From Siphlonurus alternatus (Eukaryota > Arthropoda > Insecta > Ephemeroptera > Siphlonuridae), in the NCBI GenBank assembly GCA_949825025.1, contig OX463779.1:43594249-43658248 (forward strand): 64,000 bases of DNA, written 5' to 3'. This document shows positions 14,913-63,702 of the stretch, one piece after another (the stretch's first letter is position 1; each line of letters starts with the position of its first letter). A program made the position numbers and the translations under genes. Under the pieces are notes generated by a model that saw only the letters and a list, made by a program, of their open reading frames with translations, was not told where the DNA came from and made no database searches.

Positions 14913-14974
14913 TAAGGATTTTGTACAGTTTGAAAATTAAATTTTAGGACTTCTCTGTTTTAAAACTTTGCAGG

Positions 14975-34285: not shown

Positions 34286-34865
34286 TTTCATACCTCATAT
34301 TATTAATTCGTTTTTATTTTTTACGTAATGAAAAAATAAATATAAGTGAATAGATCGAGTAGATTTCAGTTATTTTTTTAGAACAAATTTTAAGAAGGTG
34401 CAAGTTAAAACTTCGTGAGAGAGAAAAAAAAATACAATAACTATCATGCATTGAGCATGATTATAATGTTATCTGTTCACACACTTGCAAATATTATTTT
34501 TTTCGTTAAAAATTGTTGATTTTTTTGGTAAATTTCGATCAGTGTCTTACCAGTGCGCCGCACTGGCGTCAAATGTCTTACCAGTGCGGCGCACTGGTGC
34601 GCACCGGCTTACTTTCACCACTGAATATAACACACAACAAGTTAAGATATATTATGGTGATTACAAAAATGGCACTTCTTTGATCCAACTGAAGATTAAA
34701 ATTATTTTATTACAATCTTCAGCTTAGGTGATTTTTTTTTTTATCGACCACCTTTACAAACAATTTAAAAATTATTGGAGTCTGGGTAAACTTAACATAG
34801 AAATTTAGCTAAAAGTATTACACAAGGTATTTAAAAGTAAAAAAGGTAGGCCAAATTTATGTTAA

Positions 34866-35570: not shown

Positions 35571-35574
35571 TTAA

Positions 35575-39100: not shown

Positions 39101-42100
39101 AATCCAAACAAATTATTTGAATGATGATTAACTTTTTATTATGTTAACACAAACTTGCTGCATATTTAGAAGCATTTCCTACTGATGTTCTAAAGTGAAC
39201 TCACCGTGGTGAAGAAGGCAGCGCGATCGTCCACGGCTATTCCTTTGAAAAGAGTGTCATTCTTCAGCAAAGCTCCGGTATCCTGATGGAATGCAACAAG
39301 TCAGTAATGGTAATGGAGCCAGTAGGAAAGCTATACATACCCGGTCAAACTTTTTGTAGTGTGATCTGATCTGAGCGTTAGCACGCTTCTCCAGCCTCAC
39401 AATTTTCCTTCTCTCATAATTTTGGATCCGCCTGCAAACGGAGAAATATATTTGGTAAAAAACAAGGGCAATTTTAAACTGAGACATACCTTATTTATAT
39501 TTCGAAAATATCCATTGTATTTTGAAATTTATACTACAATACCGGTACTAATAATTACAGTTAAAAAAACTTGTAAAATCAGATTAAAATGTATTACTGT
39601 ATTAATTTTTGTTCAGTACCTTTTCTTCTTCTTAAGGTAGAGATAATGTCGAACAGCTGTTCGACGTAATCCCCTTTGATTAACATGTAAACCTTAGCAA
39701 ATTGACAAAAATTCTGAATTTTTTTTCAGAGGCAGATATTAGTGCCTAAAAGCCATAGCAAAAGTTTCAAAAACATTTAACGAGCCGATTTTTTTAAATT
39801 AATTTTTTAGTTTGGCTCTCCATGGGAAAGCCCTATGCTGAAAATTAAAAAAATTAATTAAAAAAAATCGGCTCGTTAAATCGTTTTGAAATTTTTTCTA
39901 TGGCTTTTAGTCACTAATATCTGCCTCTAAAAAAAAATTCAGAATTTTTGTCAATTTGCTAAGGTTTACATGTTAATCAAAGGGCATTACGTCGATCAGC
40001 TGTTCGGCGTTATCTCTACCTTAAAAAAAAAAATAATAATAATTGAAAACCTGAAGTTAAAAAAAAAAAAAAAAAAATTGGGAAAAAATTTTCTGTTTAC
40101 TGAAATAAGTTCTAAAATAAATACAGTAATAAATAAATAAGTAAGTTCTAAATTTAAAGAAAAATCAAGGTTCAGGTTAATGATGATTCTTATCCTCATG
40201 CAGAATTGAGCACCAGCACACTTCATCAATGATCAGGAAGTTAAATTGATAGTTCTACAATTGAACAACATGTAACGAGGGCGCCACTGACCTGAAGAGG
40301 GAGTAGAAGTTGACGGTGATGGCAAAGTCCTTGGCCAGGTTCCAGTCCGTTCTGTAGACGTGCCGGTTGAAGTTGGACCTCGTGAGAGCTGCGTCTGGGA
40401 CGACGTCAATGTTGGTGGCCGCAAACTTCTCGTCATCTGTGAAGTTGATGTTAGGGTGGGCAGCCACCAGCAGCTCCTACAACAAGATGTCATTACGTGT
40501 TTACATGTGCGTCCATATCATTTACGAATTCACTGATTTTTAGATGAATTAAACATTTATAAGAATTTTTTAAATATTTTTGATGATACCACAAGAGTAA
40601 GTGATAATTTTTGTCACTATTTATATTTTTGCAATGGCATCCAAGCGTATACCATTTTCTTGAGAGATCGTCAGAAAAAGTCGTTGACAAATCAAGGTGG
40701 TATTCATTGAGAGTTGTCTGCTTCACAAATACGTAAACTAACGTTTGAAATACTGTACAAGGTTCTGTAATCTGTAGCCAGCCTTGACAAAAAACTTATT
40801 GGCTACAGCTTTCTACAACAAATTCTTCCATAGGAAAAAAATATTGGGACCCCTAGGTTAAAATTCAACATTTCGGTAGACTTTACCTTGAAGAAGGGCT
40901 CCACCTCGAAGTTGTCTCCGAGGTATAGCAGACGTGTGGAGATGCCAGAGCGCATGATGGTGTCTGCTCGCTTGCACGCCTGACGTCGCAGGTCCACGGG
41001 CATGTCCCTCATGTCGTCACACGTCATCAGAAAGAGCTCTTTTGCGCCAAACTTGATAGTCCTGGAGGCAAGCAATTCCTAAAGTAGGGACAGTTTTGGT
41101 ACCCCCAAGTAACATCACTTACATATTGTCACTCCATGCTATTTTCCCCATAGCAAAAAAACAATAAAGCAATTGAAGAGGGGTACTTTAAGTCCCTTTT
41201 GGTCCGTATCACAAGTATTAAGACACTATTTAATGAGGTTAGAGTGAATTAAACTACATACTTCAAACTGTCAAAAATTATACATACTTCTTTATCTTTT
41301 TTACAGCAAAGTACTTTATTCTACACTTGTATTTTTTTTTGTGTGTTACAGATTTATGAAATTCAAGTTTTTCCATAACACAACATTGGTGTGCTTTCAA
41401 AAAACATCCCTTGACTTGCCATGATCATGCTCCCTCTTTAAGAGATTCTACACCAAAGGATATAATCATGAAAGGAAGATTTACTTTGAATGATAACTGT
41501 ATTGTCATCAATATGACATTAATACATTGTTCTATCAGCTCATTTGTATTGGTTCTATGCTTCTAGTTGATTACAGTATGTATTCTAAATGTTGAGGGGA
41601 CAGTCAAATCCCTAGTTTCATAAATTTGCAGTTCTTTTTTACATTCCTTGGGGTGTCTCATCTATCTAGAAAATTAACTTTGTCCTACGAGGAGTTGAAT
41701 TCCTTACTGGTATTTTTATTTCTAGGAGCATGTGTACTTACGTGGACAACAGCATGTTCTGAGACGTCCATATTCCATCAGATAATTGGTAGTCCAATTT
41801 GACATTGTAGTTTTTCATAAAGATCTCAGCAAAGTCTTCAGCTAGAAAATTTAAAAAAAAATAAGGAAAATATTATTTTTAAATAAAATAAACATTAAAT
41901 ACTCTTGCCTAACATAGGTATATTTTAATTCATACTATGGTGCCCTAATTTGTCATTTGAATAACACAGTGGCTAGATTTTGAACTACTAAATTTGGATG
42001 TAGGAGGCAACAATAATCAACGTAGATACTGACAACTAAATTCTTACAGTTAATATAAGCATCGAGCATAATCAGAATGTCTGCATTCGGTCTTGTCACT

Positions 42101-42936: not shown

Positions 42937-43192
42937 TGTAATTTATATCAGAATTTACAGAAGATTAAAAAAATCTTCAACAGATAAATCTATCCGGCAC
43001 ATTTGTAAACAAATGCAAATAAAAATGGCGCAGATCAAAATGCCAACTTCACAAAATAAAAACACTGAAAAAATATATTTTTTAATTTCAAGTTTTTTAC
43101 TAGTATTAATATTTTTTCAAGAAATTATTCAGTTAAAACAATTTTGATTATATTTATACTATTTTTTTTTTTGTGAGTTGTTTATTATTTTC
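42937..43192 (-). promoter_or_regulatory. Short Ku70 upstream region bounded by the foldback element
   Basis: Only 256 bp separate the Ku70 start codon from the terminus of the 15 kb element. No TATA box is certain. If Ku70 is expressed, its promoter is either here or inside the arm, which carries a CCAAT-containing segment (GACCAATCAGCG near 43443). Confidence 0.4.
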
Positions 43193-44000
43193 GGTACGAC
43201 AGGAGAATTCTTCGCTCTAACGTATACGAAAAGTAAGCACATGATAAAATTCTACGTGTAAATTGAAGGCCAATAAGAGTATTCATTAAGCGGCAAATTG
43301 CATAATTAGCGAGTAATTGAATTAATAAGATTACATGTTAATCATATGGAGGGATAAGAGGCCGCTAAATTTGGCAACGCAAGATGGATTCTCAACCACT
43401 TTGAACAGTCGTGAAGTTGGCATCGACACGAAAAAACCAATCCGACCAATCAGCGTTTAGATAGTTAATAGTTAAACCTTGTGCCAACAGATGGCCATAC
43501 TGTCCTCAAAAAGTGCGAAAGCGCACTAAAAATTTAAAAATCAAGGTTTTATCTACATTAAAATGTATTTTTGTTATTGTATATAATTATAATATTATAG
43601 TTTCATGACCAAATCGAAGCATGTTGCAAGATTACACGGCATATTAAATACATAAAAACGGCATTACTTAGAGAGAAACTCGCATAAAACGGAGATATAA
43701 TAATTATAAGTTTCTCAATTAGTTCACATAAGTACTTTATATGCATGTTATATATGCAATTAATTGCTGCATGGCATATAATTATGTGGCCGAGATTTAT
43801 TTCTTCCGACGGTTTCATTATAAAGAACTACTGCGTTGCCGAAATGATAATTTGAAACTATTATGTACCTAGCAAGCATGTTATATATAAATATCGATCT
43901 GTCCAAACATTTATTAAATATATATATATATATATATATATTAATATACATGGTATATAATTTTAAAATTAAATATTCACTTTATTTTAGATTAAATTGA
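43193..44000. repeat. Left outer arm of the giant inverted repeat
   Basis: Single-copy segment mirrored at 57240-58181. It includes a short frame of 71 codons (43603-43818, minus) whose mirror (57563-57778, plus) differs at two residues. No family is recognised, so conservation most likely reflects arm homogeneity rather than coding. It also holds an AT microsatellite (43918-43941). Confidence 0.8.
43918..43941. repeat. AT microsatellite, left arm
   Basis: About 12 AT units; the mirror site at 57406-57463 has about 29. Confidence 0.9.
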
Positions 44001-47000
44001 AATGTGGAATCAGATTTCTCCATGATGATTAAACATTGAATATAACTGTTGAGTTTTTATTAATCTAGTTTTTATTAATTCAATAATCTAGCATCCTGCA
44101 ATATTTTTCAACCATCTTTTTAACATTAATATGTTATATATTATATATCACAAATATTATATATTATAGCTCTCTGCAACTCATTATCTCAAAAAGTCAT
44201 TGCAAATATGGAGAATCTTAACAAATGAATTTAGAATGAAAATATTATACATAAAAAATTTTTGATTATACTACACAGGAGACATATATGAAACTCTTTC
44301 GAAGTTATTTTTCTAAGTTTTGAGGTTATAACAATTTACTGAACAAATTTAGTATGATATATATATATACGAATTAAATTTAATGTCGTTGTAATTAACA
44401 GCAGAGGAATCTTTTAAAATGATTCTGAAATGGCAATAAAGAATTTTCTGTTATATATTACAGGGAACAACTTTTTGATTCACATTTTTCTGAGTTTTAA
44501 TGTTAATATATTTGTTGAATTAGATTCCAATGTTTAAATATATAATCAAAATTTTCATGTCGCGTCGTTGAAAAAGCGGGAAATTTGTCGATTGATTGTA
44601 AAATGGTTTTAAACAATTTTCTGAGGTGGTGATGATCAACTTTCTCCCTGACATTTTCCTGAATTTTGATGTACTAATTAATGCATTATTTTACTATGTT
44701 AAAAATACTATTAAATATTCAAGGACGTTGTAACAGCAGGAAACTTGACGAATGAATCTAAATTGAATTTAAAGTAATTTCTGAGGTGGTAATGATCAAC
44801 TTTCTCCCTGACATTTTCCTGAATTTTGATGTTACCATTATAATTAATGCATTATTTAATTTACTTTGTTAAATACACTATTCAATATTCAAGACGTTGT
44901 AACAGCAGGAAACTTGACGAATGAATCTGAAATGAATATAAAGTTATTTCTGAGGTGGTAATGATCAACTTTCTCCCTGATATTTTCCTGAATTTTGATG
45001 TTACTAATTAATGCATTATTTTACTATGTTAAGTATCATACTATTATATATTCAAGGACGTTGTAACAGCAGGGAACTTGACGAATTGATCTAAAATGAA
45101 TATAAAGTAATTTCTGAGGTGGTATTGATCAACTTTTTCCCTGACATTTTCCTGAATTTTGATGTTACTAATTAATGCATTATTTTACTTTGTTAAATAC
45201 ACTATTCAATATTCAAGACGTTGTAACAGCAGGAAACTTGACGAATGAATCTGAAATGAATATAAAGTAATTTCTGAGGTGGTAATGATCAACTTTCTCC
45301 CTGACATTTTCCTGAATTTTGATGTTACTAATTAATGCATTATTTTACTTTGTTAAATACACTATTAAATATTCAAGACGTTGTAACAGCAGGAAACTTG
45401 ACGAATGAATCTGAAATGAATATTAAGTAATTTCTGAGGTGGTAATGATCAACTTTCTCCCTGACATTTTCCTGAATTTTGATGTTACTAATTAATGCAT
45501 TATTTTACTATGTTAAATACACTATTCAATATTCAAGGACGTTGTAACAGCAGGGAACTTGACGAATGAATCTGAAATGAATATAAAGTAATTTCTGAGG
45601 TGGTAATGATCAACTTTCTCCCTGACATTTTCCTGAATTTTGATGTTACTAATTAATGCATTATTTTACAATGTTAAATATACTATTAAATATTCAAGGA
45701 CGTTGTAACAGCAGGGAACTTGACGAATTGATCTAAAATGAATATAAAGTACTTTCTGAGGTGGTATTGATCAACTTTCTCCCTGACATTTTCCTAAATT
45801 TTGATGTACTAATTAATGCATTATTTTACTATGTTAAATATACTATTAAACATTCAAGGACGTTGTAACAGCAGGAAACTTGACGAATGAATCTGAAATG
45901 AATATAAAGTAATTTCTGAGGTGGTAATGATCAACTTTCTCCCTGACATTTTCCTGAATTTTGATGTTACTAATTAATGCATTATATTACTATGTTGAGT
46001 ACACTATTAAATATTCAAGGACGTTGTAACAGCAGGGAACTTGACGAATGAATCTGAAATGAATATAAAGTAATTTCTGAGGTGGTAATGATCAACTTTC
46101 TCCCTGACATTTTCCTGAATTTTGATGCTACTAATTAATGCATTATTTTACAATGTTAAATATACTATTAAATATTCAAGACGTTGTAACAGCAGGAAAC
46201 TTGACGAATGAATCTGAAATGAATATAAAGTAATTTCTGAAGTGGTAATGATCAACTTTCTCCCTGACATTTTCCTGAATTTTGATGTTACTAATTAATG
46301 CATTATTTTACTTTGTTAAATACACTATTAAATATTCAAGACGTTGTAACAGCAGGAAACTTGACGAATGAATCTGAAATGAATATTAAGTAATTTCTGA
46401 GGTGGTAATGATCAACTTTCTCCCTGACATTTTCCTGAATTTTGATGTTACTAATTAATGCATTATTTTACTATGTTAAATATACTATTAAATATTCAAG
46501 GACGTTGTAACAGCAGGAAACTTGACGAATGAATCTGAAATGAATATAAAGTAATTTCTGAGGTGGTAATGATCAACTTTCTCCCTGACATTTTCCTGAA
46601 TTTTGATGTTACTAATTAATGCATTATTTTACAATGTTAAATATACTATTAAATATTCAAGACGTTGTAACAGCAGGAAACTTGACGAATGAATCTGAAA
46701 TGAATATAAAGTAATTTCTGAAGTGGTAATGATCAACTTTCTCCCTGACATTTTCCTGAATTTTGATGTTACTAATTAATGCATTATTTTACTTTGTTAA
46801 ATACACTATTAAATATTCAAGACGTTGTAACAGCAGGAAACTTGACGAATGAATCTGAAATGAATATTAAGTAATTTCTGAGGTGGTAATGATCAACTTT
46901 CTCCCTGACATTTTCCTGAATTTTGATGTTACTAATTAATGCATTATTTTACTATGTTAAATATACTATTAAATATTCAAGGACGTTGTAACAGCAGGAA

Positions 47001-49578
47001 ACTTGACGAATGAATCTGAAATGAATATAAAGTAATTTCTGAGGTGGTAATGATCAACTTTCTCCCTGACATTTTCCTGAATTTTGATGTTACTAATTAA
47101 TGCATTATTTTACAATGTTAAATATACTATTAAATATTCAAGGACGTTGTAACAGCAGGGAACTTGACGAATTGATCTAAAATGAATATAAAGTAATTTC
47201 TGAGGTGGTATTGATCAACTTTCTCCCTGACATTTTCCTAAATTTTGATGTACTAATTAATGCATTATTTTACTATATGTTAAATATACTATTAAACATT
47301 CAAGGACGTTGTAACAGCAGGAAACTTGACGAATGAATCTGAAATGAATATAAAGTAATTTCTGAGGTGGTAATGATCAACTTTCTCCCTGACATTTTCC
47401 TGAAATTTGATGTTACTAATTAATGCATTATTTTACTATGTTAAATACACTATTCAATATTCAAGACGTTGTAACAGCAGGAAACTTGACGAATGAATCT
47501 GAAATGAATATAATGTTATTTCTGAGGTGGTAATGATCAACTTTCTCCCTGATATTTTCCTGAATTTTGATGTTACTAATTAATGCATTATTTTACTATG
47601 TTAAGTATCATACTATTATATATTCAAGGACGTTGTAACAGCAGGGAACTTGACGAATTGATCTAAAATGAATATAAAGTAATTTCTGAGGTGGTATTGA
47701 TCAACTTTCTCCCTAACATTTTCCTGAATTTTGATGTTACTAATTAATGCATTATTTTACTTTGTTAAATACACTATTCAATATTCAAGACGTTGTAACA
47801 GCAGGAAACTTGACGAATGAATCTGAAATGAATATAAAGTAATTTCTGAGGTGGTATTGATCAACTTTCTCCCTGACATTTTCCTGAATTTTGATGTACT
47901 AATTAATGCATTATTTTACTTTGTTAAATACACTATTAAATATTCAAGGACGTTGTAACAGCAGGAAACTTGACGAATGAATCTGAAATGAATATAAAGT
48001 AATTTCTGAGGTGGTAATGATCAACTTTCTCCCTGACATTTTCCTGATTTTTGATGTTACTAATTAATGCTTTATTATACTTTGTTAAATACACAATTAA
48101 ATATTCAAGACGTTGTAACAGCAGGAAACTTGACGAATGAATCTGAAATGAATATTAAGTAATTTCTGAGGTGGTAATGATCAACTTTCTCCCTGACATT
48201 TTCCTGAATTTTGATGTTACTAATTAATGCATTATTATACTTTGTTAAATACACTATTAAATATTCAAGACGTTGTAACAGCAGGAAACTTGACGAATGA
48301 ATCTGAAATGAATATAAAGTTATTTCTGAGGTGGTAATGATCAACTTTCTCCCTGATATTTTCCTGAATTTTGATGTTACTAATTAATGCATTATTTTAC
48401 TATGTTAAGTATCATACTATTATATATTCAAGGACGTTGTAACAGCAGGGAACTTGACGAATTGATCTAAAATGAATATAAAGTAATTTCTGAGGTGGTA
48501 TTGATCAACTTTCTCCCTAACATTTTCCTGAATTTTGATGTTACTAATTAATGCATTATTTTACTTTGTTAAATACACTATTCAATATTCAAGACGTTGT
48601 AACAGCAGGAAACTTGACGAATGAATCTGAAATGAATATAAAGTAATTTCTGAGGTGGTAATGATCAACTTTCTCCCTGACATTTTCCTGAATTTTGATG
48701 TTACTAATTAATGCATTATTTTACTATGTTGAGTACACTATTAAATATTCAAGGACGTTGTAACAGCAGGGAACTTGACGAATTGATCTAAAATGAATAT
48801 AAAGTACTTTCTGAGGTGGTATTGATCAACTTTCTCCCTGACATTTTCCTGAATTTTTATGTACTAATTAATGCATTATTTTACTTTGTTAAATACACTA
48901 TTCAATATTCAAGACGTTGTAACAGCAGGAAACTTGACGAATGAATCTGAAATGAATATAAAGTAATTTCTGAGGTGGTAATGATCAACTTTCTCCCTGA
49001 CATTTTCCTGAATTTTGATGTTACTAATTAATGCATTATTTTACTTTGTTAAATACACTATTAAATATTCAAGACGTTGTAACAGCAGGAAACTTGACGA
49101 ATGAATCTGAAATGAATATTAAGTAATTTCTGAGGTGGTAATGATCAACTTTCTCCCTGACATTTTCCTGATTTTTGATGTTACTAATTAATGCATTATT
49201 ATACTTTGTTAAATACACTATTAATTAAATATTCAAGACGTTGTAACAGCAGGAAACTTGACAAATTGATCTAAAATGAATATAAAGTAATTTCTGAGGT
49301 GGTATTGATCAACTTTCTCCCTGACATTTTCCTGAATTTTGATGTACTAATTAATGCATTATTTTACTATGTTAAATATACTATTAAACATTCAAGGACG
49401 TTGTAACAGCAGGAAACTTGACGAATGAATCTAAATTGAATTTAAAGTAATTTCTAAAGTGGTAATGATCAACTTTCTCCCTGACATTTTCCTGAATTTT
49501 GATGTTAAAATTTAATGGAATATCTTACTATGTTAAATTATACACTATTAAATATTCAAGGACGTTGTAACAGCAGGC
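44000..49578. repeat. Left-arm satellite array, monomer about 160 bp, about 31 homogeneous copies
   Basis: The landmark GACGTTGTAACAGCAGG recurs from 44724 to 49561 at intervals of about 160-169 bp (31 occurrences). Each monomer also has CTTGACGAATGAATCT, TTTCTGAGGTGGTA, TGATCAACTTTCTCCCTGAC and ACTAATTAATGCATTA. Left of about 44560 monomers become recognisable only by fragments (for example TTAACAGCAGAGGAATC near 44398 and AAAGCGGGAAATTTG near 44573), an edge-decay pattern typical of satellites. Larger duplicated blocks of about 480 and 803 bp are visible. Confidence 0.92.
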
Positions 49579-50664
49579 GAGCGGAAAACGTGATGCAACC
49601 TCCTCCCATAAGGATAACATGGGAAACGCATCCTTTTCCCGAATAACTTTTTTTTTACGTCATTGACATGGTGTTTTTCGACGAATCCTGTTAAAACTAG
49701 GCGTCTCACGCAAAAAAAATATGCGTTTCAAGAATGTGGGTCCTACGGGGCCCGCAGGGCCCCTCCTCGAATGTACGCGTTTTGGATCCATAATGGCGGG
49801 CGAGCGCAACGTCCCACAACTTTGTTGTGACATTTTATGGACTCTACACCATGTGCCCTTCAATTTGATACCCGACTCGACCCTCTGCGACTACCGGAAG
49901 TGCGTTTTTTCGAAAACGAAAGTTGGGTCTCAAATCCCCATAAGAATAACATGGGGCCATTTGATTAGCATTGCGGGCGGATCTGCCGGCCAAAATACCC
50001 GTTTTTTACGGGTTGCGCCAAACTCGGGGAAGAAATTTTTTTTCGAGCAAACTCTCGACGGGAAGTTGTAGAGGACCCAAAACAATGCCCAAAAACCAAT
50101 TTTGGGAATTTTCCGGCACATAGGGGGTCCACGCGGCCCGATCCAAGATACTAATTTTTCGATATCCAAAATCCCGATTTCGGGAAAGTATTTGTCCCGA
50201 AAATTTTTTTGTCCAAATTTTCTAGACCAGTTTTTTGAGCCGGACAAGATGCAGTCTTCAGATTTAAGCTGCGACCCATAGTTCTCGAGATTTTTGAATT
50301 TTTATGTTTTTGACAAAAATTTCAGAAGGAGTACGTACCCCTTCTCTCACCGCTTATACATGGGGAAGATAGGGGGAAAAATCGAAATTGAGTTTTCGAC
50401 GGTTTCTGACTATATCAAGCACGCTGATCACGAATCTGGCCTCGGATTTTGCAGATCTCGAAAAACAAGATGGCGGCGGGCGAAATACCTATTTTTCGTA
50501 TATGCACTATATTCTGCTCGAATTTCATGCATTTTTTTCAATGTACAGGTGTTTTTTTATGGGTAATTAAAATAATAAATTGACTTTCTATAGGTAAAAA
50601 CATCCCTGGAGTTTAAAAATGACCATTATTTAACGATAAGAAAAATACTTTAATTGTTATTCAA

Positions 50665-50850
50665 TTTTAAGCGAGGCGAGGAACGAGCCGAGCTGCGTAT
50701 GAGTTGGCAATGTTATTCATTGCCCTCACGCATCTATCAAAGAATTTTAAGCGAGGCGAGGAACGAGCCGAGCTGTATTTCGAAAGGCCAACACTATCTT
50801 ATTCCATTGTATGGATAGGCGAGGTCTCCGAAGGAGCCGAGCTGCGTATG
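50665..50850. repeat. Three short direct repeats, GCGAGGCGAGGAACGAGC type
   Basis: Copies at about 50665-50700, 50745-50775 and 50818-50850 share GAGGCGAGGAACGAGCCGAG, followed in two cases by CTGCGTATGA. The first two are preceded by TTTTAA. They sit inside the Helitron-like insertion. Function unknown. Confidence 0.7.
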
Positions 50851-50997
50851 AATGGCGGACCCGTGACGAACGCGCGCATGTTTTTTATTCTTACGCGTTG
50901 CGAGCCATATCAAACTTCCCTCTACAGTCCAGTTTCATGTTAAATTATGCCAGAAACTCGAATTTAGTTCTTTCGAGAACCGGAAATGAACGGGGAA

Positions 50998-51188
50998 GGC
51001 GGGAAATTCAAAAAAATAAAGCGGGCGGCAATATTTAAAGCTGCTGGCGATCATTATTGGGTGGGAAACACGTTTCATGCATATTATATCGCGCGTGCAC
51101 CGCGGTTTGAACGGTTTCCCGCCAACATTCAAGAGGCCCCGTAATGTGCATGACGTCACAGCTTGTGGATCGTCGTTGCCATGGCAAC
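50998..51188. promoter_or_regulatory. Cluster of E2F, CRE and X-box consensus motifs
   Basis: Within 190 bp lie GGCGGGAAA (50998-51006) and TTTCCCGCC (51115-51123), both E2F-type sites, a full CRE TGACGTCA (51151-51158) and a perfect palindromic RFX X-box GTTGCCATGGCAAC (51175-51188). The sequence is CpG-rich. About 140 bp downstream, CTTGCAAGGTAAAATG could be an exon end with a splice donor. This resembles a host promoter and first exon carried inside the insertion; which gene it came from is unknown. Confidence 0.45.
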
Positions 51189-51811
51189 GGGTAAACAAGC
51201 ATTGTTGGGAACGGCGAGGGGACGTGATTACAAAATTTCCGAGAATGTCGTTGACGTTCTCAACAGTCATTCGTTCTCTGACCGCCGACTAGCGAGGTTG
51301 ACTCAGATACAAAGACTTGCAAGGTAAAATGTGAATGGTTATATACTGAATTTATTTTAAATCTCTGTCCGCTACCAGGTTCCTTCTGATAAGCTTCCTT
51401 CCGCTTTTCGGTTTCCCGGTTTCATCCGATTAAAAAGTCCTACCGAATTCCGCTTTCCCGGTTTCATCCGATTAAGGAGCCCCACCTTCTACGATTCGCT
51501 TTGCTGTTGCTGACGACTTTGTAATAAATGGTGACAAAAGAAAGTGGAACTACTCGACTCAGAGGTGCTGTATCTTCGCTTTATTTATTATTTTTTATAA
51601 CTATTTTTATTTATTTTTTATTTCTGTATATTTTTTGATGCAAATATTTTTCACAACATGATTATTATCAAATCCAAGAACCCTATTAAAAACCCCTGCA
51701 ATTTCTTCGAACCCGTTGAAACTTTTTTTGAAAAATTAAGACTGCCATGGCATTGCAAATGATCACTGCACACTGATTTGGGGCCTTTTCGTAAAGGCCC
51801 CCCTGCCCTAG

Positions 51812-52080
51812 TTTTACTATGTTAAATATACTATTAAATATTCAAGGACGTTGTAACAGCAGGAAACTTGACGAATGAATCTAAATTGAATTTAAAGTAA
51901 TTTCTGAGGTGGTAATGATCAACTTTCTCCCTGTCATTTTCGTGAATTTTGATGTTAATATTTAATGGATTATTTTACTATGTTAAGTATACTATTAAAT
52001 ATTCATGGACGTTGTAACAGCAGGAAATTTGACACATGATTGTAAAATGATTTTAAACAATTTCCTGCGTTACTGATGAT
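51812..52080. repeat. Satellite remainder right of the insertion (two monomers)
   Basis: Two further copies of the 160-bp monomer, with landmarks at about 51847 and 52010. The second has the diverged form ATTTGACACATGATTG that is mirrored at 54026-54055 in the right arm. Confidence 0.85.
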
Positions 52081-52082
52081 CA

Positions 52083-52497
52083 ACTTTCTTCGGTATCCGG
52101 AGAACTCGGAGCGCGGTCAACTGGGAGCCGGACAGCTCGGAGCCAAACGTGCTTCTAGGACAACTCGGAGCACGGACAGCTCGGAGCGCGGACATCCTGG
52201 AGCCAAGGCAGGACAACTCGGAGCACGGACAGCTCGGAGCGCGGACATCCTGGAGCCAAGGCAGGATAACTCGGAGCACGGACAGCTCGGAGCGCGGCAT
52301 CCTGGAGCCAAGGCAGGACAACTCGGAGCACGGACAGTTCGGAGCGCGGACATCCTGGAGCCAAGGCAGGACAACTCGGAGCACGGACAGCTCGGAGCGC
52401 GGACATCCTGGAGCCTAGGTAGGAATACTCGGAGCACGGACAGCTCGGAGCGCGGACATCCTGGAGCCTAGCTAGGACAACTCGGGGCACCGCTTTA
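52083..52497. repeat. GC-rich tandem repeat, about 53 bp unit, left arm
   Basis: About six to seven copies containing CTCGGAGCACGGACAGCTC, GGAGCGCGGACATCCTGGAG and CCAAGGCAGGACAA. Some copies lack a base (for example GCGCGGCATCC near 52294). Mirrored at 53431-53833. The unit is not a multiple of three and all frames stay open on both strands, so long translations here are not proteins. Confidence 0.9.
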
Positions 52498-53430
52498 TTT
52501 AAATTACAATTAATGAATTTCAAAATAAAATTGATATATGCCGAGAATGTATCGTTAATCGTAACATTTATTGTTATATTTATATTACTTATATTTATTA
52601 CGTATGTACAAAAAAATTATCAAGTTTTCTGATCTGATGTATCTGATAAGAGATAATCCAAAAATTATATCATGAATTATTATTATATTATTAAATTTCT
52701 GCAAATTAATATTATACAACCTATTTTTTTTTTTTCTGCCAAAAAGATTTCATTTTGTTATATTTGCATGCTTTTAAACTTTTAACTTTTAAATATTTTA
52801 TGCAATATTGATTTTATAAAAAAAGAAAAATTATGAGTTGGACTTATCTAAAATATTTACAGAAATTATCTATCTACTTTTTAGTCTCCTTTCTCAAAGT
52901 TTACCAACTTAAATTCATTTTTAAGTTTATTGTATATCTAAATTTAGTAATTAAATAATACAGCACAAAGATTTTATCAAAACTGTGTACTTTATTATTT
53001 CACATAATATTATATTAGATTATCAAAATGATTCCTAACTTATGTAATGTCATTTACTATAAACAAAAGTATTCACAATGTTCAATTAACAATGATCGTC
53101 ATGGGAAAGTTGATACAGCATGTGTTGCGTTAACTTACTGCTAATTGAATCATTAATCAGCCTAGGAATTAATCAGTCATTAATCAGTAAGATAATGCCA
53201 CCAGTGTTAAAAAAAAAAAGTGAACATTTGACCGCATAAGGTTAACTTTACTTCCATATATTACACAGTAAAACGTACCTCACTGTTGCATCATCAGAAA
53301 CGTAATAAATATAATTAATAAATAATATAATATAAGTAATATAACAATAAATGTTACGATTAACGATACATTCTCGGAATATATCAATTTTTATTTTTAA
53401 ATTCATTAATTGTAATTTAAATAAAACGGT
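52498..53430. other. AT-rich inner stem and loop at the centre of the foldback
   Basis: The first and last roughly 110 bp still pair (TAATCGTAACATTTATTGTT against AACAATAAATGTTACGATTA), while the middle (about 52600-53320) is single-copy and AT-rich with no recognisable gene. A family-B-like fragment (AGATAATGCCACCAGTGTTA near 53189) is present. Confidence 0.75.
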
Positions 53431-53833
53431 GCCCCGAGTTGTCCTAGCTAGGCTCCAGGATGTCCGCGCTCCGAGCTGTCCGTGCTCCGAGTTGTCCTAC
53501 CTAGGCTCCAGGATGTCCGCGCTCCGAGCTGTCCGTGCTCCGAGTTGTCCTGCCTTGGCTCCAGGATGTCCGCGCTCCGAACTGTCCGTGCTCCGAGTTG
53601 TCCTGCCTTGGCTCCAGGATGACGCGCTCCGAGCTGTTCGTGCTCCGAGTTATCCTGCCTTGGCTCCAGGATGTCCGCGCTCCGAGCTGTCCGTGCTCCG
53701 AGTTGTCCTGCCTTGGCTCCAGGATGTCCGCGCTCCGAGCTGTCCGTGCTCCGAGTTGTCCTAGAAACACGTTTGGCTCCGAGCTGTCCGGCTCCCAGTT
53801 GACCGCGCTCCGAGTTCTCCGGATACCGAAGAA
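53431..53833. repeat. GC-rich tandem repeat, about 53 bp unit, right arm
   Basis: Inverted counterpart of 52083-52497, again about six to seven copies, ending TTCTCCGGATACCGAAGAAAG. Unlike the left arm, the shortened copy lies in a different base context (ATGACGCGCTCC near 53619), showing independent small changes. Confidence 0.9.
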
Positions 53834-53837
53834 AGTT

Positions 53838-53983
53838 TATTTATTTATTTATTTATTTTTATTTTGGAACTTCTTTTTGGTTGTACAAGACAAACATATG
53901 TTCAAGTCAAAATTGGACAAAATACAACATAAAAACATCAAACTTAAACACATTTACATAAGTTATTTAACACTAAGTAAGTT
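53838..53983 (-). mobile_element. Short LINE 3' tail inserted in the right arm
   Basis: A 146-bp segment absent from the mirror position of the left arm. On the minus strand it ends in an (AAAT)n-type tail (TTTATTTATTTATTTATT on the plus strand at about 53836-53862). AAGTT occurs on both sides (53833-53837 and 53979-53983), a likely target duplication. It is a heavily 5'-truncated retrotransposon insertion; the LINE family cannot be told. Confidence 0.6.
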
Positions 53984-56760
53984 GATCATAAGTAACGCAG
54001 GAAATTGTTTAAAATCATTTTACAATCATGTGTCAAATTTCCTGCTGTTACAACGTCCATGAATATTTAATAGTGTATTTAACAAAGTATAATAATGCAT
54101 TAATTAGTAACATCAAAAATCAGGAAAATGTCAGGGAGAAAGTTGATCATGATTACCACCTCAGAAATTACTTTATATTCATTTCAGATTCATTCGTCAA
54201 GTTTCCTGCTGTTACAACGTCTTGAATATTGATCGAATAGTGTATTTAACAAAGTATAATAATGCATTAATTAGTAACATCAAAAATCAGGAAAATGTCA
54301 GGGAGAAAGTTGATCATTACCACCTCAGAAATTACTTAATATTCATTTCAGATTCATTCGTCAAGTTTCCTGCTGTTACAACGTCTTGAATATTTAATTA
54401 ATAGTGTATTTAACAAAGTATAATAATGCATTAATTAGTAACATCAAAAATCAGGAAAATGTCAGGGAGAAAGTTGATCATTACCACCTCAGAAATGACT
54501 TTAAATTCAATTTAGATTCATTCGTCAAGTTTCCTGCTGTTACAACGTCCTTGAATATTTAATAGTATATTTAACATAGTAATATAATGCATTAATTAGT
54601 AACATCAAAAATCAGGAAAATGTCAGGGAGAAAGTTGATCATTACCACCTCAGAAATTACTTAATATTAATTTCAGATTCATTCGTCAAGTTTCCTGCTG
54701 TTACAACGTCTTGAATATTTAATAGTGTATTTAACAAAGTATAATAATGCATTAATTAGTAACATCAAAAATCAGGAAAATGTCAGGGAGAAAGTTGATC
54801 ATTACCACCTCAGAAGTTACTTTATATTCATTTCAGATTCATTCGTCAAGTTTCCTGCTGTTACAACGTCTTGAATATTTAATAGTGTATTTAACAAAGT
54901 ATAATAATGCATTAATTAGTAACATCAAAAATCAGGAAAATGTCAGGGAGAAAGTTGATCATTACCACCTCAGAAGTTACTTTATATTCATTTCAGATTC
55001 ATTCGTCAAGTTTCCTGCTGTTACAACGTCTTGAATATTGAATAGTGTATTTAACAAAGTAAAATAATGCATTAATTAGTAACATCAAAATTCAGGAAAA
55101 TGTCAGGGAGAAAGTTGATCATTACCACCTCAGAAATTACTTAATATTAATTTCAGATTCATTCGTCAAGTTTCCTGCTGTTACAACGTCTTGAATATTG
55201 AATAGTGTATTTAACAAAGTAAAATAATGCATTAATTAGTAACATCAAAATTCAGGAAAATGTCAGGGAGAAAGTTGATCATTACCACCTCAGAAATTAC
55301 TTAATATTAATTTCAGATTCATTCGTCAAGTTTCCTGCTGTTACAACGTCTTGAATATTTAATAGTGTATTTAACAAAGTATAATAATGCATTAATTAGT
55401 AACATCAAAAATCAGGAAAATGTCAGGGAGAAAGTTGATCATTACCACCTCAGAAATTACTTTATATTCATTTCAGATTCATTCGTCAAGTTTCCTGCTG
55501 TTACAACGTCTTGAATATTGAATAGTGTATTTAACAAAGTATAATAATGCATTAATTAGTAACATCAAAAATCAGGAAAATGTCAGGGAGAAAGTTGATC
55601 ATTACCACCTCAGAAATTACTTAATATTCATTTCAGATTCATTCGTCAAGTTTCCTGCTGTTACAACGTCTTGATTATTGAATAGTGTATTTAACAAAGT
55701 AAAATAATGCATTAATTAGTACATAAAAATTCAGGAAAATGTCAGGGAGAAAGTTGATCAATACCACCTCAGAAAGTACTTTATATTCATTTTAGATCAA
55801 TTCGTCAAGTTCCCTGCTGTTACAACGTCTTGAATATTGAATAGTGTATTTAACAAAGTAAAATAATGCATTAATTAGTAACATCAAAAATCAGGAAAAT
55901 GTCAGGGAGAAAGTTGATCATTACCACCTCAGAAATTACTTTATATTCATTTCAGATTCATTCGTCAAGTTTCCTGCTGTTACAACGTCTTGAATATTGA
56001 ATAGTGTATTTAACAAAGTATAATAATGCATTAATTAGTAACATCAAAAATCAGGAAAATGTCAGGGAGAAAGTTGATCATTACCACCTCAGAAATTACT
56101 TAATATTCATTTCAGATTCATTCGTCAAGTTTCCTGCTGTTACAACGTCTTGAATATTGAATAGTGTATTTAACAAAGTAAAATAATGCATTAATTAGTA
56201 CATAAAAATTCAGGAAAATGTCAGGGAGAAAGTTGATCAATACCACCTCAGAAAGTACTTTATATTCATTTTAGATCAATTCGTCAAGTTCCCTGCTGTT
56301 ACAACGTCTTGAATATTGAATAGTGTATTTAACAAAGTAAAATAATGCATTAATTAGTACATCAAAATTCAGGAAAATGTCAGGGAGAAAGTTGATCATT
56401 ACCACCTCAGAAATTACTTAATATTAATTTCAGATTCATTCGTCAAGTTTCCTGCTGTTACAACGTCTTGAATATTTAATAGTGTATTTAACAAAGTATA
56501 ATAATGCATTAATTAGTAACATCAAAAATCAGGAAAATGTCAGGGAGAAAGTTGATCAATACCACCTCAGAAATTACTTTAAATTCAATTTAGATTCATT
56601 CGTCAAGTTTCCTGCTGTTACAACGTCTTGAATATTGAATAGTGTATTTAACAAAGTAAAATAATGCATTAATTAGTAACATCAAAATTCAGGAAAATGT
56701 CAGGGAGAAAGTTGATCATCACCACCTCAGAAAATTGTTTAAAACCATTTTACAATCAAT
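53984..56760. repeat. Right-arm satellite array, about 17 copies of the 160-bp monomer
   Basis: The complement landmark CCTGCTGTTACAACGTC recurs from about 54042 to 56612 at intervals of about 160 bp (17 occurrences), then decays into CCCGCTTTTTCAACGACG near 56770, mirroring 44573. Copy number is about half that of the left arm. Confidence 0.92.
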
Positions 56761-57400
56761 CGACAAATTTCCCGCTTTTTCAACGACGCGACATGAAAAT
56801 TTTGATTATATATTTAAACATTAATTGGAATCGAATTCAACAAATATATTAACATTAAAACTCAGAAAAATGTGAATCAAAAAGTTGTTCCCTGTAATAT
56901 ATAACAGAAAATTCTTTATTGCCATTTCAGAATCATTTTAAAAGATTCCTCTGCTGTTAATTACAACGACATTAAATTTAATTCGTATATATATATCATA
57001 CTAAATTTGTTCAGTAAATTGTTATAACCTCAAAACTTAGAAAAATAACTTTGAAAGAGTTTCATGTCTCCTGTGTAGTATAATCAAAAATTTTTTATGT
57101 AATATTCTCATTCTAAATTCATTTGTTAAGATTCTCCATATTTGCAATGACTTTTTGAGATAATGAGTTGCAGAGAGCTATAATATATAATATTTGTGAT
57201 ATATAATATATAACATATTAATGTTAAAAAGATGGTTGAAAAATATTGCAGGATGCTAGATTATTGAATTAATAAAAACTAGATTAATAAAAACTCAACA
57301 GTTATATTCAATGTTTAATCATCATGGAGAAATCTGATTCCACATTTCAATTTAATCTAAAATAAAGTGAATATTTAATTTTAAAATTATATACCATGTA

Positions 57401-57466
<66 letters not shown>

Positions 57467-58181
57467 ATAAATGTTTGGACAGATCGATATTTATATATAA
57501 CATGCTTGCTAGGTACATAATAGTTTCAAATTATCATTTCGGCAACGCAGTAGTTCTTTATAATGAAACCGTCGGAAGAAATAAATCTCGGCCACATAAT
57601 TATATGCCATGCAGCAATTAATTGCATATATAACATGCATATAAAGTACTTATGTGAACTAATTGAGAAACTTATAATTATTGTATCTCCGTTTTATGCG
57701 AGTTTCTCTCTAAGTAATGCCGTTTTTATGTATTTAATATGCCGTGTAATCTTGCAACATGCTTCGATTTGTTCATGAAACTATAATATATGTACAATAA
57801 CAAAAATACATTTTAATGTAGATAAAACCTTGATCTTTAAATTTTTAGTGCGCTTTCGCACTTTTTGAGGACAGTATGGCCATCTGTTGGCACAAGGTTT
57901 AACTATTAACTATCTAAACGCTGATTGGTCGGATTGGTTTTTTCGTGTCGATGCCAACTTCACGACTGTTCAAAGTGGTTGAGAATCCATCTTGCGTTGC
58001 CAAATTTAGCGGCCTCTTATCCCTCCATATGATTAACATGTAATCTTATTAATTCAATTACTCGCTAATTATGCAATTTGCCGCTTAATGAATACTCTTA
58101 TTGGCCTTCAATTTACACGTAGAATTTTATCATGTGCTTACTTTTCGTATACGTTAGAGCGAAGAATTCTCCTGTCGTACC
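56761..58181. repeat. Right outer arm of the giant inverted repeat
   Basis: Mirror of 43193-44570, including decayed monomers, the AT microsatellite (57406-57463), a 71-codon frame at 57563-57778, and the terminal CGTATACGTTAGAGCG region. The arms differ by scattered substitutions and microsatellite length. Confidence 0.85.
57406..57463. repeat. AT microsatellite, right arm
   Basis: About 29 AT units, against about 12 at the mirror site in the left arm. Confidence 0.9.
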
Positions 58182-58440
58182 TTAATTTCCTCTATTTTCA
58201 AAGTTTTTGACTTTGAGATATTTTTTTAGCATTGGTACCTTTGTTTTTCAAATCATGCCTCGTTTCTATTGGTCGATACTCCCAATTTTCCACCAATTGG
58301 TGTTAAACGCGGCAATCAGATCCCAGTCCCAGTGGATAGAGGAATAAATTTCTTGCAAAATGCAATATGTTAAAACCCAACACAACTTCAGCTAATCTAT
58401 CCTTTCAGATAACAATATTGAGATCTCTGTCTATCTTTTA

Positions 58441-58900
58441 AGGTAGAGATAACACGGATCAGCTGACCCAATGTTAAAAAAAATCCCTCACACAAAAATT
58501 ATGAAAAAATTTTAAAATGTTCTCCCCTCTACACCCCCTATCAGTAACTATATTAGGTATACAAATATGCAAATACGATCTAGTTTTTGAGTTATGAATT
58601 TTTAAAGTTGACTAATTTAACATGGAATTTGCATTTCTCCATGTCAAATAAGTCAACTTCAAAAATTCATAACTCATTTAACATGGAATTTGCATTTCTC
58701 CATGTCAAATAAGTCAACTTTAAAAATTCATAACTTGAAAACTAGCTCGTTTTTGTATAACTCATGATATTTTAGATACTGATAGGGGGATGCATATATT
58801 ATGTAGAGGAGAACATATTTCATGTAATTTTTTTCATAATTTTCATGAATGCATGGGATTTTTTTAGCATTGGGTCAGCTGATCCGTATTATCTCTACCT
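58441..58900. mobile_element. Foldback MITE, AGGTAGAGATAA subfamily with family B interior
   Basis: Left AGGTAGAGATAACACGGATC, right complement ending ATTATCTCTACCT. The next bases CAGCTGACCCAATG / CATTGGGTCAGCTG also pair. The interior shares CCCTCACACAAAAATT and TCTACACCCCCTATCAGTA with family B. A local duplication of about 60 bp (TTTAACATGGAATTTGCATT twice, near 58617 and 58677) lengthens the centre. Confidence 0.78.
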
Positions 58901-59599
58901 TTAACCTTAAAAAAATGTACTAACAATTCTCATAAGTGACCAATCCTCTTATTCCATTTCATTAATGCATGAGCTTATCAGTATTATATATCATTATAAA
59001 TTAATAAAGCTGTTTTAAGGCCAATTATATAAATATAAGTTAATTTATAATGAATTTTGTACTCTTAATTTTTTTTAAACCTCTTTTAGGTATCTGGATA
59101 GAAAAATATATCAGTGTTTTGTTACAGATTTGCCTCTGAGAGACTTTTTTTATTTCATGGAAGTACAATATCAACATAACTATATTTCAACATTAATTTA
59201 TATTTAAGTTAAAATAAACGTTTTCTTTGAAAAATATATATGAATATACGGAGAGTTTCACTTCACAATGCATCAATCATACTTAACACCAAAACAATTA
59301 ACACTTCAGTTTTTGCATCTAAACCTGAACATTTAAACTGTAGTTAATAACTGAATGGTTTCACAGGAGACTGAAAATTTAACTAACAATTAAACAGCAT
59401 GATTTTTCAATACTGGTCAGAGATAGTACCTGTACTGTACTTAAGTCTTACATTATACACATGTGTGGAAATTGTGCTTTTCTGACTTTTTTTTTTTTTT
59501 TTCATTGTCAACTTTAACCCATAACCATAATTAAAATAATGTAATTTCTGGGTATGTAATCTAAGGCTGTAGTGGATGACAATTTAAAAAAGTAGAATA
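58901..59599. other. AT-rich intergenic stretch
   Basis: Nothing recognised. Confidence 0.4.
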
Positions 59600-61493: not shown

Positions 61494-63702
61494 TCACTCA
61501 TAGTCTGCAATAAGTACCATCATGTACACCCCAACAAGGAGGGCGATGATTTCCTTGACCGACTGTCCGAACTTTGTGTCCACCAACAGTTCGGGGATCA
61601 CGGACACCGTCGCTATGTAGATGAAACCTCCAGCAGTGAATGGCAGGATCCACTGAGTCGCAGCTCCGCCTGCAACGATTAGTCAAATTTCATTCAGGAA
61701 ACAAATGTAATGCTTGGAAAGAGGAAATTCGGGGTGTGATTATTTTAGACAAATAATAAAAAAATATATAATTACAGTACCACTGTATTCAATACATAAT
61801 TGGTTTTCTACCTGAGAAAAAATATCAAAACTGGTTGATACAGCTTACAGCACATAAATACTGAGGCAAAAATAAAGTTTATTATTATTACTTTTACTAA
61901 ATTAAATACGAATTCAGATCAGGTTAGAATAGACATATATTTTTTTATTTAATGTAATAAAAAAATTTTGTGGGCATTAAATGCTGCACTTAATTTAAGT
62001 GATTGTTGAGCCTATCAAGAGCATATATTTTACTTCAACAATGACTACACATTATGGTTATGGAGGTTTCAAAGAATCGTCAAAATTTCTCTAACCACAA
62101 TGAAACATGTCGTGCTTACCAATTCCCTCAGCCATCAGAGAGACTAGTGTGCCCGTGAGAGCTCCGACTGCAGTTGTCAGCTGCAGCAACATGGCCTGCA
62201 AACGAGAGAACAACATCAAGTCCGGCACCAAGTCCTCTCAGTACGCACTTGTCTGAGAAAAATGTCACCAACACTCTTATTTGTGATATAATTCTCAGCG
62301 TTTGGAATCAATGCATAGAATTATCACAGACAAGACATTCAATGCAATATTTAGAGCAACAAGACTCTTTTCTCTTTCTTCTCAGTATCTTTGGTTCTAA
62401 AAGATGTTTACGACAGTTCTATAACCACATCATTTTATGTAAATCAAAAGTTGATCCACATGACTTTACTATCAAGATAATAAATACAGTATCAGTTTCA
62501 TATTTTTAGCTACAGCTTACATTTAAGTAGAATTTTTTTACTAAAATTTCTTCTTACAATTATTCGAGTATGATAAAACAAAACTTTAATCAAGAAAAGC
62601 AAAATTTTACAACACTACATTCACACAACAGTGTTTACTTGATGACGCCTCATAAAAATAACATTAAAGTAGAGTGAGCGAGTTCATTTTTTTTAATATT
62701 TTATTTTTTAAAAATAGTTTAAGCTGCCCTCTATTGAGAAATGAAAACCAAAAAATTCCATCTCAAATAGTTTCACCACAAAAAATTCCCAAAGTTGATG
62801 TTTCGGAGACCTTTAATGCGCAGCCTTATGGAACATAAAACAGTGTTTTACTCCAACTTTTTCTGAACTATGGTACCATTTAAAAAATACTTACGTACGT
62901 AATCTATGATGAATTCTTTAATGAATTTTCAAATAAAAAAAAAAAAATAAGGGGTCGTTTTCTTAGAAAAAAATCATGAAAATCCTTATGGGAATTAACC
63001 CGCAAAAACTTGAAGATTTTTTTCCGATTTTTCGTATTTTTTTTTTTATTATTTAAAAATCCATTAAAGAATTCATCATAGATTACGTAGGTATTTTTTA
63101 AATGGTATCATAGTTCAGAAAATGTTGGAGTAAAACGCGGTTTTATGTTCCATAAGGCTGCACGTCAAAGGCCTCCAAACACCAACTTTGGGAATTTTTT
63201 GTGGTGAAACTATTTGAGATGGAATTTTTTGGTTTTCATTTCTCAATAGAGGGCAGCTTAAACTATTTTTAAAAAATAAAATATTAAAAAAAATGCAATC
63301 ACTCACTCTACTTTAACTGTCACCAACGAATACGTATTAAACATAGTCATGTAATAGTCATAGTGATTGGGCATCTGGTATGCAGACTAGGTATTAGGAG
63401 CCCCAGAGAACACTATGAACAAAGTTGAAAAAACAAATTCTGCAGTTATTAACCAAATACTAGTTAGATACTAGTTGAAACAAGTTGACATTAGTTAACC
63501 ACCTTCTTCCTGCTGCAGCCGGACTGGATGAGGATGGCGAAGTCTCCGATCTCATGTGGCACCTCGTGCAGGAGGATGGTGGCCGTGGTCACGATGCCGA
63601 CGCTGCGGCCTGCCAGGAAGGACGCTCCGATGGCCAGTCCGTCTGTGAAGTTGTGCGTGAAGTCCGCGGCAAGGTTCAGGTAGCCAGCCACCTTGATGTC
63701 TT
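61494..63702 (-). CDS. SLC39A7: ZIP7/Catsup-type zinc transporter, C-terminal exons (gene continues past window)
   Basis: Three minus-strand exons: 63503-63702, 62120-62195 and 61494-61669 (stop), GT-AG with agreeing phases, giving about 150 C-terminal residues. The metal-binding helices are plain: [20 protein letters not shown] (HNxxDG motif) and [16 protein letters not shown] (HExPHE motif), followed by [43 protein letters not shown] and a final hydrophobic helix [12 protein letters not shown]. The combination matches SLC39A7 (ZIP7, Catsup in Drosophila) better than ZIP13, which has NFTHGLA at the first site. Family members release zinc from the ER/Golgi to the cytosol. Upstream exons, including the histidine-rich N-terminal part, lie beyond the right edge; the first listed exon starts after a GCAG acceptor in phase 1. 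Confidence 0.92.
62668..63312. mobile_element. TTAA-flanked foldback MITE, family A, copy 2, in ZIP7-like intron
   Basis: Same termini as 11949-12591 (AGTAGAGTGAGCGA and complement) with TTAA on both sides (62664-62667 and 63313-63316). Length 645 bp against 643 bp. Arms are nearly identical to the other copy and the loop is slightly different. Lies in the intron between the first and second visible ZIP7-like exons. Confidence 0.85.

What the first reader, a model, noticed from the sequence alone, without database searches (positions are those of the whole stretch)
43193..58181. A 15 kb foldback element with four mirrored layers, two of them tandem-repeat arrays
Arms mirror each other in order (single-copy end, 160-bp satellite, 53-bp GC-rich array, AT-rich stem) around a roughly 0.7 kb loop, with exact terminal complementarity and TTATTTTC/TTAATTTC flanks. 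FB elements of Drosophila have tandem repeats in their arms, but two distinct nested arrays and this size are unusual. It looks like a mobile or formerly mobile unit that carries and spreads a satellite. No transposase is visible.
Basis: partly seen in the sequence, partly recalled or inferred. Interest (0 to 1): 0.9.

Follow-up and report, generated by a model that had tools for sequence, protein, structure and literature searches.

The report
Giant mirror transposon pivoted on another
This is one of about two dozen copies of a very large jumping DNA element in a (probably mayfly) genome, and its two mirror-image halves likely arose when a second, hairpin-shaped jumping element landed inside it and served as the pivot around which one half was copied backwards.

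Summary
The mirror is real and mobile, but it is two elements, not one. The ends of 43193-58181 match at 1351/1358 bases. Its 30-bp terminus occurs 53 times in the 456-Mb genome (control 0), giving 24 convergent pairs 9.3-29.6 kb long; 17 have perfect 8-bp target duplications (mispaired control 0/552), this copy 7/8. The 53-bp array, AT stem and loop are a separate high-copy foldback ("FB-B", 52092-53827) at the pivot.

Three core types were found: 6 asymmetric pairs (core + X), 9 mirrored around a palindromic MITE, 7 (with this one) mirrored around FB-B; 2 pairs are untyped. Sister copies lack each pivot at the same place. Beside FB-B one flank is lost and the other repeated inverted, without target duplication. 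MITE halves carry 7 side-fixed substitutions in 165 bp, the adjoining arms 0 in 420.

Best explanation: palindromic insertions likely acted as pivots for inverted duplication, twice independently, making giant foldbacks that then transposed. No transposase was found; GG ends and 8-bp duplications suggest Merlin.

The parts
43193..58181 (.). whole giant foldback transposon (a subfamily B copy)
43185..43192 (+). left target duplication TTATTTTC (7/8 to the right one)
58182..58189 (+). right target duplication TTAATTTC
43193..44565 (+). left end domain, begins GGTACGACAGGAG; its inner part holds two diverged 160-bp units (44294-44450, 44465-44640)
44566..49577 (+). left 160-bp satellite array
49578..51811 (.). 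2234-bp insert present in the left arm only; no Pfam family at its cut-off in the five ORFs tested
51812..52091 (+). innermost left satellite units, including the edge unit that ends GATCAACTTTCTTC at the pivot insertion point
52092..53827 (.). FB-B, an independent foldback element at the pivot (GGTATCC...GGATACC)
52092..52489 (+). FB-B left 53-bp GC-rich array
52490..52600 (+). FB-B AT-rich stem, left
52601..53315 (.). FB-B loop; 148 candidate places genome-wide, 40 scored
53316..53429 (-). FB-B AT-rich stem, right
53430..53827 (-). FB-B right 53-bp GC-rich array
53836..53975 (-). ~140-bp retroposon-like insert with (TTTA)n, right arm only, splitting the mirrored edge unit 8 bases from FB-B (limits approximate)
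53976..56785 (-). right 160-bp satellite array
56786..58181 (-). right end domain
39621..40033 (.). copy, outside the element, of the palindromic MITE family that is the pivot in subfamily A (about 95% identical)

Best explanation
The window holds one copy of a foldback DNA transposon family with 8-bp target duplications whose mirror symmetry likely arose by inverted duplication of one arm around a second palindromic transposon (FB-B) inserted in it. Shown: 22 of 24 copies fall into three core forms; those read share the end domain and the 160-bp satellite; sister copies lack each pivot element at the same place; in 5 of 5 FB-B copies read at the pivot the flank that should follow the insertion is absent and the retained flank is repeated inverted, with no target duplication (in the window that inverted flank is itself split by a later insert); and 17 of 24 copies have perfect 8-bp duplications. 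Inferred: the pivot's hairpin let repair synthesis (after a break or transposase excision) turn round, by snap-back or a hairpin-capped end, and copy the retained arm back to its terminus, giving an element with two identical ends that stayed mobile. This would have happened at least twice, once on a TTAA-type MITE (9 copies) and once on FB-B (7 copies). Within each arm the 160-bp array then turned over, presumably by unequal exchange. Movement would be by a transposase supplied in trans, perhaps of Merlin type.
For: Mobility: 53 termini, control 0; 17/24 pairs with a perfect 8-bp duplication, mispaired control 0/552 perfect and 2/552 at 7/8 or more. Core types: 6 asymmetric and 9 MITE-mirrored pairs by position, of which 3 asymmetric (L072, L074, L085) and 5 mirrored were read; 7 FB-B pairs by position, 5 read. 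Unfilled FB-B site: 8 of the 10 arms of 5 subfamily A copies, and 9 of the 10 arms of 5 subfamily B copies, share a near-identical 80 bp and then split into CTGATATTTTCC (A) or GGTATCC of FB-B (B) (L073 right arm lies outside the fetched stretch, L079 left arm did not match, window right arm is split by its insert). Unfilled MITE site: CCAAAAATTGGTTCAAGAAAGTGAC in L072 and L074 against CCAAAAATCGGTTTAAG + MITE in L071. Age contrast in subfamily A: MITE halves 95.2-95.9%, adjoining 400-bp arms 99.5-100%, in 5 of 5 copies read; 7 side-fixed substitutions in 165 bp against 0 in 420, Fisher 1.3e-4. Two indels in the arms go with side, not with copy, in 4 of 5 copies, and one edge-unit base does so in 4 of 5 FB-B copies, as expected if one event preceded dispersal. 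FB-B stands alone elsewhere, e.g. L083 with a 10-bp direct repeat CGTGTGATAT, read by eye.
Against: Two events only: the 9 and the 7 copies look like one event each, so the coincidence of turn-round point and palindromic element rests on n = 2, in a genome where palindromic elements fill about 12% of the rest of this window. The age contrast does not show for FB-B: satellite edge 96-100% against AT stem 97-98% in L080-L082, though in the window the stem is 95.5% against 98.75-99.5% for array and ends. Over 550 bp instead of 400 the subfamily A arms give 91.0-100%; the two low values (L075, L076) fall where an (AT)n run differs in length. The asymmetric copies are relatives, not ancestors (core pieces 83-92% to the subfamily A core), and the stretches searched (L072, L074, L077, L085) lack the exact edge unit in which FB-B sits, so B could derive from A. 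The asymmetric form already has mirrored satellite arms, whose origin these pivots do not explain. One pair (C2:17963849) has another core and one (C2:1994049) no duplication and unrelated sequence in its middle 5 kb. 7 of 24 pairs lack a perfect 8-bp duplication. Subfamily A's TTAA junction alone cannot exclude insertion at the dyad of an existing palindrome.
Confidence: 0.72

Rival explanations
1. The arms were lengthened by ordinary repair between inverted TIRs, as proposed for Galileo: a break in one TIR was repaired from the other TIR and the copied tract ran on into internal sequence. The palindromic elements would be passengers, or merely the place where the tract rejoined.
For: Recruitment of internal sequence into TIRs, and an inserted TE transferred from one TIR to the other, are described for Galileo (PMC3573991 passages; PMC4168063 sections 6 and 10). 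The asymmetric copies have inverted satellite arms that could pair.
Against: In both independent events the turn-round point lies inside a palindromic element and the mirrored tract reaches exactly to its termini. A free-running tract has no reason to stop there.
Confidence: 0.2
2. The palindromic element inserted exactly at the dyad of an already perfect palindrome.
For: Would give the same layout; the TTAA of the subfamily A junction is itself symmetrical.
Against: Beside FB-B the two flanks are CTTTCTTC and its reverse complement, so there is no direct target duplication; the unfilled FB-B site runs into core, not into an inverted arm; core runs into X in asymmetric copies.
Confidence: 0.04
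3. Assembly or read artefact (foldback chimera).
For: Long palindromes are a known artefact class (recalled).
Against: Arm-specific inserts and different array lengths; 24 pairs at separate sites, 17 with 8-bp duplications.
Confidence: 0.01
4. A single foldback element whose arms by design hold two nested arrays.
For: Layered arms exist in Tetris: flanking domain, tandem repeats, inner domain, middle (PMC4079207 section 10).
Against: Inner array, stem and loop occur without the outer layers (32 of 46 and 60 of 67 scored matches lie outside the pairs), and 15 of the 22 typed pairs have another core.
Confidence: 0.02

Closest known systems
Tetris (foldback transposon of Drosophila virilis, PMC4079207; abstract, sections 3 and 10 and part 1 of section 16 read)
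   Same: Long TIRs made of a single-copy flanking domain, a tandem array of about 220-bp units with variable copy number, and an inner domain; no transposase; 8-10 bp TSDs; the array unit resembles part of the flanking domain, as two decayed 160-bp units lie in the end domain here.
   Different: Tetris TIRs reach 1.7 kb while these elements are 9-30 kb; no second foldback at the pivot and no pivot comparison in the parts read.
Galileo (P superfamily; PMC4168063 passages and sections 6, 10; PMC3573991 passages)
   Same: TIRs extended by tandem repeats (~140 bp in the 9-kb copy), by recruitment of internal sequence, and by other TEs that end up in both TIRs.
   Different: TSDs 7-8 bp with consensus GTATTAC, not seen among the 17 here. 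The mechanism offered is TIR-guided repair; a palindromic TE as turn-round point was not mentioned in what I read ('palindrom' 0 and 'hairpin' 0 occurrences in PMC3573991; PMC4168063 was not searched for these words).
Merlin superfamily (PMC8101967, passages only)
   Same: Termini 5'-GG, TSDs of 8-9 bp; some families hold tandem repeats.
   Different: Reported TIRs 24-462 bp; no Merlin transposase was found in or tied to this family (the genome search for it did not complete).
Palindrome- or hairpin-driven inverted chromosome duplication (PMC3315005, PMC10622511, PMC7467729; listing and start of abstract only)
   Same: A palindrome or hairpin at the centre of an inverted duplication.
   Different: Described there for chromosomes of E. 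coli and yeast, not as a route that remodels a transposon which then spreads.

Membership tests
Foldback-type TIR transposon (structural class) | very long inverted arms with internal tandem repeats | tested here: met
Foldback-type TIR transposon (structural class) | dispersed copies flanked by target duplications | tested here: met
   17/24 perfect 8-bp, mispaired control 0/552
Drosophila FB / Mutator foldbacks | Mutator-type transposase relationship | not tested
   PF10551 search not answered
Drosophila FB / Mutator foldbacks | 9-bp TSD (recalled) | tested here: not met
   8 bp in 17/24 pairs; the pivot family FB-B shows 10 bp in the one standalone copy read
Merlin | termini 5'-GG | tested here: met
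   GGTACGAC at 53 termini; criterion from PMC8101967
Merlin | 8- or 9-bp TSD | tested here: met
Merlin | DDE_Tnp_IS1595 transposase in an autonomous partner | tested here: inconclusive
   PF12762 search not answered; apart from the X ORF no ORF of 100 aa or more in the centres L078, L084, L085; a 127-aa ORF in the L071 core was not scanned
Galileo / P superfamily | TSD consensus GTATTAC (D. willistoni) | tested here: not met
   the 17 TSDs listed show no such consensus (by eye)
Tetris | modular TIR: flanking domain, tandem repeats, inner domain, middle | tested here: met
   but inner domain and middle belong to FB-B
Tetris | sequence homology to Tetris | not tested
   no Tetris sequence was fetched

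The most novel reading that the evidence does not exclude
Giant foldback transposons are made by parasitism of one transposon by another: a hairpin-forming element that lands inside a TIR transposon turns it into a double-headed mirror element, and because each such event creates a new, larger palindrome, the process can feed itself and package satellites into mobile units. This genome, dense in palindromic MITEs, would show it caught in three forms: asymmetric, MITE-mirrored and FB-B-mirrored.
Probability: 0.55. Interest if true: 0.87.

Novelty: new variant of a known kind. Interest (0 to 1): 0.8.

Why it matters
How foldback elements get arms that span almost the whole element is an open question; the published view read here is recombination between TIRs. 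This family offers asymmetric relatives, unfilled sites and two different pivots within one genome, so the origin becomes directly testable. It also shows satellite arrays being carried to new sites in 9-30 kb units and then diverging arm by arm.

Tried and rejected
The single-element and dyad-insertion readings were rejected (see rivals). Similarity of the terminal 100 bp to satellite, GC array, stem or loop: none above shuffles, and none between the 2234-bp insert and the GC array (that script then stopped with an error, and its remaining control was rerun). Pfam on five ORFs of the 2234-bp insert: one weak match below its cut-off. X ORF (211 aa, intact in L072 and L085, broken in L074): an OTU-like GGGDCFYAAVSWTLYG motif by eye (family recalled), but no Pfam family at its cut-off, no protein at E <= 0.01 among 52 word-sharing candidates of a 5.8-billion database, one insignificant PDB match (E 0.1) and a useless single-sequence model (pLDDT 34). 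The OTU idea is only a lead. Phage collection: no match. A long hairpin RNA role was considered; not testable here. Rows dropped: satellite-internal BLAST rows hidden; the 5 single termini left out of the pairing; partial satellite units left out (46 whole units used).
Full report
Observation. Left and right arms align from 43193 and 58181 inward. The end domains are 1351/1358 identical, the 53-bp arrays 395/400 with no indel and with variant units mirrored, the AT stems 105/110. The 160-bp arrays differ in length (30.8 and 16.8 copies by TRF) and are out of register: of 46 whole units 34 are nearer to a unit of their own arm, 14 of 555 within-arm pairs are identical and 0 of 480 between-arm pairs, and 0 of 2000 label shuffles reach the observed contrast. 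The edge units of the arrays remain mirrored. Each arm has its own insert: 49578-51811 on the left, about 53836-53975 on the right. Two decayed 160-bp units lie outside the left array, the outer at 21.8 bits against at most 1.0 in 200 shuffles. This is not a read artefact.

Where it is. The window lies in a 455.7-Mb genome of 102 contigs. For a kinase ORF at 15342-15980 the best-scoring named relative is a pseudoscorpion protein (69% identity), but the highest identities among the named rows are mayflies (Ephemera danica 87% over 79% of the query, Neocloeon 77%, Cloeon 76%). A mayfly is likely, not shown.

Mobility. The first 30 bp occur 53 times with at most one mismatch (26 forward, 27 reverse; reversed-pattern control 0). 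By adjacency I pair 48 of the 53 into 24 convergent pairs 9.3-29.6 kb long; 5 are single. In 17 of 24 pairs the 8 bases outside the two ends are identical; the window has 7/8, two pairs 6/8, one a 5-bp and one a 14-bp direct repeat, and two none. Mispaired flanks give 0 of 552 perfect and 2 of 552 at 7/8 or more. The family therefore inserted by transposition with 8-bp duplications. As the 40 scored terminal 201-bp matches all print as 100% identical, this was probably recent.

Two elements, not one. The loop has 148 candidate places in the genome (40 scored) and the GC array plus stem 290 (40 scored); 60 of 67 and 32 of 46 of the listed matches lie outside the 24 pairs. Of those 32 outside matches of array plus stem, 20 begin at query base 30-40, that is at or within a few bases of the satellite/array junction, 11 begin further in at 91-99, and one short match begins at 20; none begins at 1. 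A standalone copy (L083) has the same GGTATCC start and, by eye, a 10-bp direct repeat CGTGTGATAT outside its ends. So 52092-53827 is an independent foldback, here called FB-B.

Three core types. A search with core+X (L085:1-2347) places X in 6 pairs, in one orientation each, and nowhere else among the 40 scored of 2878 candidates. It places the core in 9 other pairs on both sides of a gap of about 385 bp. In the 5 of these 9 that I read (L071, L073, L075, L076, L079) the gap is a palindromic MITE of about 395-398 bp of the family seen at window 39621-40033. FB-B sits in 7 pairs, of which 5 were read at the pivot (window, L080, L081, L082, L098). In all, 22 of 24 pairs are typed. C2:17963849 has another core and C2:1994049, without target duplication, has unrelated sequence in its middle 5 kb.

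Unfilled sites. For FB-B: 8 of 10 arms of 5 subfamily A copies and 9 of 10 arms of 5 subfamily B copies carry a near-identical edge unit ending GATCAACTTTCTTC; in A it continues CTGATATTTTCCGGACATTTG into the core, in B it continues into FB-B. Of the three arms not in that list, L073's right arm lies outside the fetched stretch, L079's left arm did not match, and the window's right arm is split 8 bases out by its own insert. On the far side of FB-B the CTGATATTTT flank and any direct duplication are missing, and the near flank appears again inverted. Insertion at a dyad would have left a direct duplication, so it does not explain this. For the MITE: L072 and L074 read CCAAAAATTGGTTCAAGAAAGTGAC straight into X, while L071 reads CCAAAAATCGGTTTAAG into the MITE, and beyond the MITE comes the inverted core, not X.

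Order of events. In subfamily A the MITE halves are 95.2-95.9% identical while the adjoining 400-bp arms are 99.5-100% identical, in 5 of 5 copies read; over 550 bp the arms give 91.0-100%, low in L075 and L076 where an (AT)n run differs in length. Sorted by MITE orientation, the halves differ by 7 side-fixed substitutions in 165 bp and the arms by none in 420; Fisher p = 1.3e-4. The MITE palindrome thus predates the arm duplication. Two indels in the arms go with side and not with copy in 4 of 5 copies, which fits one event before dispersal. In subfamily B one edge-unit base goes with side in 4 of 5 copies read (my reading), L080 having the same base on both sides; no age contrast is visible in L080-L082.

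Mechanism. Shown: a palindromic element at each turn-round point, loss of one flank, inverted copy of the other, copies with target duplications at many sites. Inferred: that the pivot's hairpin caused the turn-round, by snap-back of nascent DNA or by a hairpin-capped end, perhaps during repair after excision. Precedent for palindromes at the centre of inverted chromosome duplications comes from E. coli and yeast work seen only as listing and abstract starts. The main rival is TIR-guided repair as proposed for Galileo; it does not by itself predict that both tracts end exactly at a palindromic element. Core pieces of the asymmetric copies are 83-92% identical to the subfamily A core and the stretches searched lack the exact FB-B edge unit, so they are cousins; B may have come from A or from an unseen asymmetric form.

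Classification. GG termini and 8-bp duplications meet the stated Merlin criteria (PMC8101967 passages), but the transposase search did not complete, so membership is open. X holds a 211-aa ORF, intact in 2 of 3 copies read; the searches tried gave it no family.

Novelty. Layered TIRs and TIR extension are known (Tetris, Galileo). I saw no account of a palindromic transposon acting as pivot in the listings of searches or in the passages read; these cover open-licence full texts only, and 110, 111 and 128 listed 12 of 98, 12 of 31 and 10 of 18 papers.

Noticed in passing
window 11927-12611, 13656-14005, 14666-14915, 17405-17656, 21450-21803, 28554-28853, 29095-29428, 29933-30283, 30947-31299, 33967-34287, 34862-35574, 39621-40033, 58440-58901, 62661-63320: Fourteen near-full-length palindromic MITE-like elements, 5798 of 49011 bases outside the giant element; several ends carry TTAA. 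This window is unusually rich in hairpin transposons.
   Followed up: partly
window 17405-17656: Palindromic element starting CAGAGACC with a direct repeat ATACCACAC on both sides.
   Followed up: no
L072:3361-3993 (-), L085:1705-2337 (-): A 211-aa ORF in asymmetric copies with an OTU-protease-like motif by eye and no relative found.
   Followed up: partly
G000:C2:51396145-51405493: This copy has a 14-bp direct repeat TAGTACCTTCTGTA at its ends instead of 8 bp.
   Followed up: no
L085:730-1010: A 281-bp stretch of the asymmetric core belongs to a very common repeat; the query containing it had 2878 candidate places.
   Followed up: no
L094, L095, L097 (C9:1254725, C11:28674793, C1:41156218): Single termini sharing only roughly the first 24-47 bp with the family, possibly ends of other relatives.
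   Followed up: no
window 7414-7532 (-): 5S rRNA gene match.
   Followed up: no
window 37293-37784 (-), 15342-15980 (-): A Ku beta-barrel exon and an uninterrupted UMP-CMP-kinase-like ORF.
   Followed up: no
window 53187-53216: 30 bp of the FB-B loop match the end of the TTAAGGGTAAG MITE family.
   Followed up: no
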